DNA of 56,352 bases, from the NCBI GenBank assembly GCA_029862185.1, contig JAOTXX010000018.1, forward strand, positions 1 through 56,352. Reading direction: 5' to 3'. The position numbers were made by a program, and so were the translations under genes. Below the pieces are notes generated by a model. That model had not been told where the DNA came from, ran no database searches, and was given only the letters and a program-made list of their open reading frames with translations. The DNA is from Myxococcales bacterium (GTDB lineage: Bacteria; Myxococcota_A; Polyangia; Polyangiales; Houyiibacteriaceae). Below are positions 9,914 through 56,323 of this stretch, one piece after another (position 1 is the first letter of the stretch; each line of letters opens with the position of its first letter).

Positions 9914-10104
9914 GGGGCGCGGAAAAAAGCGCGATGTGGGTCGGAGTCGACGTCGCAAGTGCCAATCTGCAAGACAGCAACCACCCCAGATTGGCGCGCG
10001 CGCCGAGGCGAGGCTTGCCTGGTCCCCGCCCCCAAGTCCAACCGACCAGATTTGCAGGCCGAGCCGTTCGACGCAGGCCCGCGTCGCGCTTTTTTCCGCG
10101 CCCC
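9914..10104 (+). repeat. Type 1 intergenic repeat, copy A
   Basis: Best-preserved copy. The two ends are perfect 21-base inverted repeats: 9914-9934 (GGGGCGCGG, six A, GCGCGA) and 10084-10104 (TCGCGC, six T, CCGCGCCCC in reverse order). Inside are stem 1, GCCAATCTG (9961-9969) with CAGATTGGC (9987-9995), and stem 2, GGCTTGC-CTGGTC (10012-10024) with GACCAG (10044-10049), an ATTT bulge and GCAGGCC (10054-10060). Beyond a tandem G-A mismatch, three more pairs extend stem 2. It fills the junction of converging lgt and ileS. No credible reading frame. Confidence 0.85.
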
Positions 10105-14370: not shown

Positions 14371-14551
14371 GGGGCGGGGGATGGGGGGTGGAGTCGACGT
14401 CGCAAGTGACAATCCGCAAGACCGCAACCACCCCGGATTGGCGCGCGCGCCGAGGCGAGGCTTGCCTGGTCAAAGCCCTCAAGTGCAACCGACCACAATT
14501 GCAAGCCGAGCCGTTCGACGGAACCCCGCTTCGCGCTTTTTTCCGCGCCCC
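14371..14551 (+). repeat. Type 1 intergenic repeat, copy B (left arm decayed)
   Basis: The right arm (14531-14551) is identical to that of copy A. The left arm has lost the A tract (GGGGCGGGGGATGGGG). From GAGTCGACGTCGCAAGTG onward it follows copy A closely. Stem 1 is CAATCCG (14410-14416) with CGGATTG (14434-14440); copy A has AATCTG/CAGATT here, so both sides changed together. Stem 2 is CTTGC...TGGTC (14461-14471) with GACCA and GCAAG (14491-14505). It sits between converging folD and parB and ends 16 bases before the parB stop. Confidence 0.85.
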
Positions 14552-42450: not shown

Positions 42451-42490
42451 AAGTCGCTTGTGGGGGGGGTGGTTGATGGGCTTGGGGCCT

Positions 42491-42693
42491 GGTTTGGTTT
42501 AATTACATCGCCCCCCCCCCCCCACCCGTAATCCTCCCTGGCGCGGCATTCGCTTTGCTCTGCCTTGCCGGCGCATTCGCGCCGGGCTTCGCCCGTTGGG
42601 CTCGCGCTGCCGCCTGCTGTCTTATGGGGGTTGCTCCTGTGCCGCGCTTCTACACAAATGGATATGAATGGAGGGGCGCGGAAAAAGCGCCCC
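42491..42693 (+). repeat. Type 2 intergenic repeat, copy D, ending in a type 1 left arm
   Basis: Starts GGTTTGGTTTAATTACATCG, then a run of C, CACCCGTAATCCTCCCTGG, and three hairpins. These are GGCA/TGCC near 42545-42564, CCGGCGC-ATTC-GCGCCGG (42568-42585) and GCCC-GTT-GGGC (42591-42601). It ends with ATGGA and GGGGCGCGGAAAAAGCGC (42673-42690), the left arm of a type 1 repeat. The rest of type 1 is missing; GGGGCGC/GCGCCCC (42673-42693) now forms a solo hairpin. It fills the junction of converging rpsA and the PP2C gene, five bases from the PP2C stop. Confidence 0.8.
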
Positions 42694-44984: not shown

Positions 44985-45781
44985 GCGAAGGCAGTCGCGG
45001 GCTTCTGCCCTCGGAGCAGTATGCGTTTGAAGGGATTCCGCGACTCGATGAAGCGACCCTGCATGAGCGGCGCCAGCTGGTGTTCTTGATCCTTTCCGGG
45101 TTGTTCTTGGGAACGCTGGCCATGCTCAACATCCTGGGCGTCACCCGATTCATCGACCTGAGCTTTCAGCTCCCGGGGACGGGCCTCACCATCCCCATGC
45201 CGCTCGCCGTCGGCGTCCTGCCGTACCCGATCACGTTCCTGTGCACCGACTTCATCTCGGAGCTCTACGGCCGCCACCGCGCCAACCAGGTCGTCTGGAT
45301 GGGCCTCGCCTTGAATCTCTGGGTGATGTTCATCCTTTGGATCGGCGGCGCACTGCCCGGCTTCGAGCCCGCCGACCAACCGCAGTCGGGGATCTTCTTC
45401 GAGCTGCGCCGCCTCGCTTTCAGCGCAGTCACCGCTTCGATGATCGCCTACCTCGCGGCTCAGTTCATCGACGTTCAGATCTTTCACTTCTGGAAGCGCC
45501 TCACCGACGGACGCCACCTTTGGCTCCGCAACAACGGCTCGACGCTGGTCAGCCAACTGGTCGACACCGTGTCGGTGATCCTGATCACCCACTTCCTGGC
45601 GCAAGGCATTCCCATCGACGAAGCCGCGCCCCTGTGGCCGCAGCTCCTCACCTTCATCGCCGCGGGCTACACCTTTAAGCTCACCGTCGCGCTATTGGAC
45701 ACGATGCCTTTCTACCTAGGCGCCAAGCACCTGGGCCGATACCTCCGGATTCACCCCGTCCACGGCACTGACGCCCCCTGA
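44981..45781 (+). CDS. Queuosine precursor transporter (YhhQ/VUT family)
   Basis: 266 residues, GTG start overlapping the preceding gene. Six or so hydrophobic helices, with the family block LPYPITFLCTDFISELYGRHRANQVVW and later DTVSVILITHFLA with PLWPQLLTFIAAGYTFKL. YhhQ-type proteins import preQ0/preQ1 for queuosine tRNA modification. An N-terminal cytoplasmic tail of about 30 residues is unusual. It ends at a convergent junction with secG filled by repeats. Confidence 0.9.
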   Translation: MSEGSRGLLPSEQYAFEGIPRLDEATLHERRQLVFLILSGLFLGTLAMLNILGVTRFIDLSFQLPGTGLTIPMPLAVGVLPYPITFLCTDFISELYGRHRANQVVWMGLALNLWVMFILWIGGALPGFEPADQPQSGIFFELRRLAFSAVTASMIAYLAAQFIDVQIFHFWKRLTDGRHLWLRNNGSTLVSQLVDTVSVILITHFLAQGIPIDEAAPLWPQLLTFIAAGYTFKLTVALLDTMPFYLGAKHLGRYLRIHPVHGTDAP

Positions 45782-45828
45782 CGCTGGCGCTGGCACTGGC
45801 ACTGGCACTGGCGCTGGCGCTGGCACTG
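45779..45828 (+). repeat. Hexanucleotide repeat (GCTGGC/ACTGGC)
   Basis: About eight six-base units, GCTGGC and ACTGGC in mixed order, start right at the transporter stop codon and lead into GCTGCCGCGGATGTG. The same leader precedes copy A of the type 1 repeat (GCTGCCGCGGATGTGG at 9894-9909). So it looks like the normal left flank of the repeat family. Confidence 0.75.
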
Positions 45829-45874
45829 AGGCTGCCGCGGATGTGCTGGGGGGTGCTTGCGGAAATTGAGAGCT

Positions 45875-46055
45875 GGTTTGGTTTAGTTACACCGCCCGCC
45901 CACCCCCACCCGTAATCCTCCCTGGCGCGGCATTCGCTTCGCTCTGCCTTGCCGGCGCATTCGCGCCGGGCTTCGCCGTTCCGGCTCGCGCTGCCGCGTG
46001 CTGTCTTGTGGATGGTTGCTGGTGCCACGCTTTTACACACCTGGATATAAATGGG
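45875..46055 (+). repeat. Type 2 intergenic repeat, copy E
   Basis: GGTTTGGTTTAGTTACACCG, then a C-rich stretch, CACCCGTAATCCTCCCTGG, and hairpins GGCA/TGCC, CCGGCGC-ATTC-GCGCCGG (45952-45969) and GCCG-TTC-CGGC (45975-45985). In the last hairpin copy D has GCCC/GGGC: both sides changed, so pairing is kept. It runs directly into type 1 copy C with no gap, and D shows the same fusion point. Confidence 0.82.
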
Positions 46056-46244
46056 GGGGCGCGGAAAAAGCGCGATGTGGGGGTTCGGCGGCGTGTGAGT
46101 GACAATCCGCAAGACAGCAACCACCACGGATTGGCGCGAGCTCCGAGGCCCGGCTTGCGTGGCCTCAGGCCCCAAGCCCCTCCGGCCACCTTTGCAAGCC
46201 GGGCCGTCCGTTGCACCCCCGCGTCGTGCTTTTTTCCGCGCCCC
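46056..46244 (+). repeat. Type 1 intergenic repeat, copy C
   Basis: Left arm GGGGCGCGG, five A, GCGCGA (46056-46075); right arm TCGTGC, six T, CCGCGCCCC (46224-46244), still pairing through one G-T wobble. Stem 1 is CAATCCG (46103-46109) with CGGATTG (46127-46133). Stem 2 is the best of all copies: GGCCCGGCTTGC (46147-46158) with GCAAGCCGGGCC (46194-46205), and GTGGCC with GGCCAC inside, an 18-pair stem with a CTTT bulge. The right arm ends seven bases before the secG stop. Confidence 0.88.
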
Positions 46245-56096: not shown

Positions 56097-56243
56097 CAGC
56101 GCCAGCCTGCAGACAGCAGGCGGCAGCGCGAGCCCGAAGGGCGAAGCCCGGCGCCAAAGGCGCCGCCAAGCGCGAGCGTAGCGAAGCGCGCGGCAGGGAG
56201 GACTACGGGTGGGGGTGGGTGGGCGGTGTAATTAAACCAAACC
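56097..56243 (-). repeat. Type 2 intergenic repeat, copy F
   Basis: Reverse orientation. On the minus strand it begins GGTTTGGTTTAATTACACC at 56243 and carries CCACCCGTAGTCCTCCCTG, then hairpins CGGCGCC-TTT-GGCGCCG (56049-type register 56149-56165) and GCCC-TTC-GGGC (56132-56142). Upstream on that strand, AAAAAAGCGCGGATGTTGGG recalls the left arm of type 1. It lies after the CCA gene and before the gene that starts at 56324, the only copy not at a convergent junction. Confidence 0.78.
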
Positions 56244-56323
56244 ACCCAACCCGCCCACCCCCCGGCTACCCAACATCCGCGCTTTTTTGGACCGGGCCGG
56301 GGGCTTCGGTAGCGTGGGCTCCC

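What the first reader, a model, noticed from the sequence alone, without database searches (positions are those of the whole stretch)
9914..10104. Type 1 repeat: a 190-bp element with terminal inverted repeats and covarying hairpins
Seen in the sequence: three copies (9914-10104, 14371-14551, 46056-46244) share terminal inverted repeats and two internal stems. Stem 1 is AATCTG/CAGATT in copy A but AATCCG/CGGATT in B and C. Stem 2 is CTGGTC/GACCAG in A and GTGGCC/GGCCAC in C. A tandem G-A mismatch in A and B is replaced by CC/GG pairs in C. Changes that keep pairing on both sides argue for selection on structure, as in a structured RNA or a cruciform-dependent mobile element. I know no named family with this layout.
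Basis: partly seen in the sequence, partly recalled or inferred. Interest (0 to 1): 0.78.

Follow-up and report, generated by a model that had tools for sequence, protein, structure and literature searches.

The report
Y-shaped mobile hairpin repeat
A roughly 190-base DNA repeat is scattered in 29 copies through this bacterium's genome and occurs in seven genera in all; its sequence drifts, but nearly every change on one side of its Y-shaped fold is matched on the other, so the fold itself seems to be what is kept, and how it spreads is unknown.

Summary
The three window copies belong to a family with 29 copies in this genome and 326 in 18 of 19 genomes of the genus. The same fold occurs in six further genera of the order, with unrelated outer-stem sequence. 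It is a long outer helix, a three-way junction and two arms, the second with a four-base bulge. Covariation is very strong: 97% of cells paired, 37 of 63 pairs with changes on both sides, no shuffle as high, slid controls near 40%. Orthologous sites with and without copies show that copies come and go. Copies prefer gaps between convergent genes (15 of 23 here, against 9 of 49 window gaps). No Rfam match; none in plasmids, phages or viral contigs. Retron, RAYT/REPIN and ordinary TIR-MITE readings fail tests. In two other lineages the element lies inside an ISAs1-like insertion sequence, between terminal repeat and transposase start. Most likely it is a small non-autonomous mobile element kept for its folded strand. 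The mobilising enzyme, and whether RNA or single-stranded DNA is read, remain open.

The parts
9914..10104 (+). Copy A of the Y-shaped element (full length)
   Evidence: BLAST and CM hit, fold z -9.2
9914..9942 (+). outer helix, 5' arm of copy A
   Evidence: fold; 23 of 27 outer pairs have double changes in the genus
10076..10104 (+). outer helix, 3' arm of copy A
   Evidence: fold
9959..9969 (+). stem 1, 5' strand (loop 9970-9986 holds the conserved CAAGACAGCAACCACC)
9987..9997 (+). stem 1, 3' strand
10010..10011 (+). tandem G-A mismatch, 5' side (partner 10061-10062); replaced by C-C/G-G pairs in copy C
10012..10024 (+). stem 2, 5' strand
10044..10060 (+). stem 2, 3' strand with the four-base bulge at 10050-10053
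14371..14551 (+). Copy B; left arm degraded, core intact
46056..46244 (+). Copy C (full length)
42673..42693 (+). solo mini-hairpin GGGGCGCGGAAAAAGCGCCCC, apparently an internally deleted copy
   Evidence: direct reading; same flanks as full copies
45848..46055 (+). 'type 2' repeat often found directly upstream of the element; associated, not unusually structured (z 0.06)

Best explanation
The feature is a small, non-autonomous mobile element of about 190-235 bases whose conserved entity is a folded single strand: a long outer helix closing a three-way junction with two arms. Shown: dispersed multi-copy occurrence, gain or loss at orthologous sites, strong covariation, sharp unit ends at the ends of the helix, and a preference for gaps at gene 3' ends. 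Inferred: an enzyme acting in trans recognises the fold rather than an end sequence and inserts the element; copies that survive are those between gene ends, where they do little harm and may, once transcribed, act as very stable 3'-end hairpins that hold off exonucleases or read-through. The mobilising enzyme was not found.
For: 29 copies here, 326 in 18 of 19 genus genomes. Orthologous gaps of 21-35 bases without the element where this genome has 200-500 extra bases. Repeated unit ends at the helix ends in G021 and G047. Same fold with different outer sequence in six other genera. Covariation: genus MAFFT alignment 97.0% paired against 83.6 +/- 0.4 shuffled, 316 double-change cells against 93 +/- 10; seven-genus alignment 97.4% against 77.5 +/- 0.6, 261 against 65 +/- 7; slid controls near 40%. 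Outer helix sequence is poorly conserved while its pairing is kept. 15 of 23 copies in this genome lie between convergent genes, against 9 of 49 gaps in the window, Fisher p 1.5e-4. Carried inside an ISAs1-like IS in G024 and G063.
Against: No mobilising enzyme is linked to the element in the copy-rich genus. No target-site duplication could be seen; the nearest empty site is in DNA 85-88% identical, and that insertion also contains the type 2 repeat. Compensatory changes can also arise by template switching. Covariation counts are not corrected for relatedness. No transcription data.
Confidence: 0.55

Rival explanations
1. A structured RNA family (a small RNA or 3'-UTR element) whose copies function as RNA; dispersal is secondary.
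For: Conserved loop 1 sequence within the genus, four-base bulge and a U.G wobble kept in 35 of 43 sequences across genera. In the genus the + strand folds better, by 9.7 kcal/mol on average, in 37 of 39 copies, with 180 G.U against 9 A.C cells.
Against: The strand preference is absent in the other genera (12 of 22 copies) and in the core alone, so it may be one inherited feature. Copies come and go between species. No promoter-like sequence is shared across genera.
Confidence: 0.2
2. A palindromic DNA repeat whose arms are kept alike by template switching during replication, without selection on a fold.
For: Template switching is reported to create and maintain hairpins (PMC8794818). Outer stems in other genera are almost perfectly Watson-Crick.
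Against: Internal mismatches, internal loops and the four-base bulge persist across families, although such repair would erase them. In close copies 52 compensatory changes are isolated and 3 are clusters, where multi-base blocks are the usual footprint; isolated changes do not exclude it. Inner stems are conserved in sequence too.
Confidence: 0.1
3. An ordinary MITE: a deleted insertion sequence moved by a DDE transposase through its terminal inverted repeats.
For: Terminal inverted repeats, size, copy number, intergenic position; an ISAs1-like IS carries the element in two lineages.
Against: End sequences differ between copies and genera while the interior is conserved, the reverse of a TIR-MITE. 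The IS has its own different TIR (CAGRCCTGATYGG), whose exact form was found only at IS copies. No such transposase in the genus. A tree nests G024's IS-borne copies among G031's standalone ones, with modest support.
Confidence: 0.07
4. A bidirectional transcription terminator or insulator placed between convergent genes.
For: Convergent bias. A terminator-like stem with T-tract in the 3' arm of copy A, stem 10069-10086. In the IS it sits where read-through into the transposase would be blocked.
Against: The T-tract is missing in about half of the genus copies and in the other genera. The branched core would be unnecessary for termination. Convergent bias is also expected from selection against promoter disruption.
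Confidence: 0.08

Closest known systems
REP / REPIN elements with RAYT (TnpA-REP) transposases
   Same: Dispersed palindromes downstream of genes and between convergent genes; single units and opposed pairs; folded single strand as substrate (PMC3116915, PMC3733652, PMC8266576)
   Different: REPs are 20-40 bases with a GTAG or CGTC tag; this is 190-235 bases with a three-way junction and no constant tag. No copy lies near the RAYT genes examined; this genome's RAYT gene has other repeats (GGGACACTCTC / GAGAGTGTCCC) beside it. G047 has many copies and no Y1 transposase found.
ERIC and Correia elements (bacterial MITE-like repeats)
   Same: 100-200 bases, intergenic, transcripts predicted to form long hairpins; RNase processing reported (PMC10969869)
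   Different: Here the terminal sequence is free and the branched core is conserved across families; no direct sequence test against ERIC or Correia was made.
ISAs1-family insertion sequences
   Same: In G024 and G063 the element is inside such an IS, upstream of and divergent from the transposase (PF01609 + PF13808)
   Different: Most copies, and all in this genus, stand alone with no such transposase and without the IS's terminal repeats.
Retron msr-msd RNAs
   Same: Long closing helix with arms inside; retrons are known in myxobacteria (own knowledge)
   Different: No reverse transcriptase found in the copy-rich genomes G000, G001, G003, G009, G012.

Membership tests
MITE of a DDE insertion sequence | conserved terminal inverted repeat shared with an autonomous IS | tested here: not met
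   End sequence varies, interior conserved; exact IS TIR found only at the IS copies; no PF13808 in 11 genus genomes, no match to the IS transposase in any of 19
MITE of a DDE insertion sequence | target-site duplication | tested here: inconclusive
   Empty sites found, but too diverged to read a duplication
MITE-like mobile repeat (general) | non-coding, dispersed, present or absent at orthologous sites | tested here: met
REP/REPIN-RAYT | Y1 (RAYT) transposase gene flanked by the repeat | tested here: not met
   R1 finds no element in the RAYT loci, up to about 3 kb each side where contigs allow
REP/REPIN-RAYT | 20-40 base palindrome with GTAG or CGTC tag | tested here: not met
   190-235 bases; GGAG in part of the genus, GTAG in G021, neither in G047
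Retron | reverse transcriptase with the RNA | tested here: not met
   PF00078 absent in five copy-rich genomes; no element within about 1.5 kb of the reverse transcriptases found elsewhere
Known Rfam family | match to one of 4227 covariance models | tested here: not met
   No gathering-level match in the window; no meaningful match with relaxed threshold
Structured RNA | covarying helices | tested here: met
   phylogeny-aware test (R-scape) not available
Structured RNA | transcription of the folded strand | not testable with these tools
   No RNA-seq
ERIC or Correia | sequence homology | not tested
   Only general literature compared

The most novel reading that the evidence does not exclude
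A class of mobile element recognised only through a branched, Y-shaped folded strand: end sequence is free to change as long as it pairs, and an unknown enzyme, or a host recombinase, moves it; insertion sequences have picked it up at least twice at the same internal position.
Probability: 0.3. Interest if true: 0.82.

Novelty: new variant of a known kind. Interest (0 to 1): 0.62.

Why it matters
Small palindromic repeats are usually defined by end sequence or a short tag. Here a branched fold is conserved across genera and families while the closing helix changes freely in sequence. That makes a clear, testable case of a mobile repeat kept for structure, gives an RNA or ssDNA family with dozens of copies per genome for covariation studies, and points to an unidentified mobilising activity in an uncultured myxobacterial lineage. 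It also offers a natural test of selection against template-switch repair as the source of compensatory change.

Tried and rejected
Retron: no reverse transcriptase in the copy-rich genomes. RAYT/REPIN: RAYT genes exist but carry no copy nearby. An autonomous IS with the same ends in this genus: none seen; the one pair of ends 1.3 kb apart (L037) encloses no transposase by reading of its ORFs. ISAs1 as the general mover: transposase absent from the genus, its exact TIR absent from standalone copies. Strand asymmetry as proof of RNA: strong in the genus (180 G.U against 9 A.C) but not in other genera, so not used as decisive. Intrinsic terminator: T-tract not conserved. Phage or plasmid origin: no hits by DNA pattern or BLAST.

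Full report
The window is one contig (C69) of a 4.29 Mb genome in 169 contigs. The genus has 19 genomes on hand; named records with the same element are 'Myxococcales bacterium SG8_38' and MAGs labelled uncultured Polyangiaceae or Deltaproteobacteria. The genome itself is unnamed here, so the taxon is inferred from those records.

Observation. Copies A and C fold far better than shuffled sequence (z -9.2 and -8.6), as DNA also (A, z -7.1). Copy B has lost most of its left arm and is unremarkable (z -1.3). The adjoining type 2 repeat, of similar length, gives z 0.06.

Copy number and range. BLAST finds about 25 copies in the genome. A covariance model of the core (R1, 125 positions) finds 29 here and 326 in 18 of 19 genus genomes, from 1 to 41 each. 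G016 and G018, both listed as 100% complete, have a single copy each, at different loci but nearly identical to each other. BLAST sees nothing outside the genus, but R1 finds weaker hits in eight genomes of six other genera, which with this one make four families of the order. The intact ones fold into the same shape, with an outer helix of 20-30 pairs and unrelated sequence. A broader model (R2) run on 379 genomes of the phylum found nothing outside that order at E 0.01 and added one weak hit in a further genus of the family, G022; that search used stricter filters. No exact pattern hit in viral contigs and no BLAST match in plasmids or phages.

Structure. In a plain MAFFT alignment of 39 genus copies, 63 pairs are predicted and 37 show changes on both sides. 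Counted against controls, 97.0% of cells pair (shuffled 83.6, sd 0.4), 316 cells carry double changes (93, sd 10), and sliding the partners by 1-3 columns drops pairing to 37-44%. The outer helix carries most of it: 23 of 27 pairs have double changes. In the seven-genus alignment, where the inner stems also vary, 26 of 35 pairs have double changes, 97.4% of cells pair (shuffled 77.5, sd 0.6), and slides give 36-43%. That alignment was fitted to the model, which favours the structure; the genus alignment was not. Neither count corrects for relatedness.

Which strand. In the genus, G.U cells outnumber A.C cells 180 to 9, and the + strand folds better in 37 of 39 copies. The other genera show no such bias (12 of 22). 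One U.G wobble in stem 1 is kept in 35 of 43 sequences across genera. The evidence leans to the + strand but does not settle it, nor separate RNA from single-stranded DNA.

Mobility. For the three window loci, orthologous regions were found in the genus. Copy A is shared with G005 and G010; locus B is empty in G003, G009 and G015, with only 21-35 bases between the convergent genes; locus C is empty in G012 (21 bases against 522). By their coordinates, G011 and G012 hold a copy in the opposite orientation beside loci B and A. Aligned junctions show presence or absence but no readable duplication. In G021 the repeated unit is about 210 bases and ends with the helix; in G047 about 234. Close divergent pairs of elements occur in G001, G013, G047 and G000, and in G001 and G047 the pair itself is a repeated unit.

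Context. Genes were called with a codon-usage script trained on the window. Of 45 copies with a gene on both sides, 27 lie between convergent genes, 15 in tandem, 3 between divergent genes. For this genome alone it is 15 of 23, against 9 of 49 gaps in the window (p 1.5e-4); the baseline includes the gaps with the element, so the contrast is understated. Some copies in different genomes are orthologous, so the larger count is not independent. In the window the neighbours are lgt and a class I tRNA synthetase (A), folD-type and parB (B), a Vut_1 transporter and secG (C); names rest on Pfam.

Association with an insertion sequence. In G024 all three ISAs1-like transposase genes (PF01609 with PF13808), and in G063 two of three (the third lacks its 5' part), have the element about 190-220 bases upstream, divergently oriented. 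Both IS types share the terminal repeat CAGRCCTGATYGG, and the element lies inside it. A core tree places the G024 copies among standalone copies of the same genus and the G063 copy apart from them, which suggests two captures at the same position; support values are modest. This genus has no such transposase.

What it is not. No reverse transcriptase in five copy-rich genomes. Single RAYT genes exist in G000, G001 and G003 and none in the single-copy genomes G016 and G018, a suggestive correlation, but none was found in copy-rich G047 or in G042, and no element is near any RAYT locus read. The RAYT gene of G000 has another repeat on both sides. Rfam has no match.

Interpretation. A freely changing but always paired outer helix around a conserved branched core is the reverse of a transposon defined by end sequence. 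The reading I favour is a small non-autonomous mobile element whose folded strand is the substrate or the product under selection. Template switching, which can by itself keep stems paired (PMC8794818), is the main rival for the covariation; the retained mismatches and bulge speak against it as the whole explanation, while isolated single-pair changes (52 against 3 clusters) do not exclude it. Any effect on neighbouring genes, such as 3'-end protection or insulation, is inference from position only. Literature searches found no description of this element; the library holds open-access papers only.

Noticed in passing
window 42464-42627, 45848-46011, 56102-56275 (-): A second dispersed repeat ('type 2'), often directly upstream of the Y element and also alone; no unusual fold (z 0.06). 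It contains TGCTGTCTTG, the reverse complement of part of the element's loop 1 (CAAGACAGCA).
   Followed up: partly
L254 (G000:C146:90000-96500); also L138, L139, L142: A RAYT-like Y1 transposase gene with GGGACACTCTC / GAGAGTGTCCC repeats on its two sides; the same palindrome occupies the locus-B gap in G007 and G013, and one arm of it in G015.
   Followed up: partly
L141 (G013); flanks in L054 and L070: AAAAAGGGGACTGTCCCC-type palindromes at other gaps, one at the orthologue of locus A.
   Followed up: no
L261, L262 (G001), L264, L265 (G047): Divergent pairs of the element, 150-280 bases apart, repeated as a unit in two families, resembling a BIME/REPIN arrangement.
   Followed up: partly
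L032 (G000:C107:4261-4314) and L038 (G000:C68, 114 bases): Shortened forms: a roughly 52-base hairpin and a 114-base variant with the same outer helix.
   Followed up: no
window 45778-45840 and flanks of several copies: GCTGGCACTGGC-type minisatellite next to copies.
   Followed up: no
many MAG contig ends, e.g. G012:C118, C16, C17: Contigs often begin or end inside the element, so short-read assemblies break there and copy counts are minimum values.
   Followed up: no
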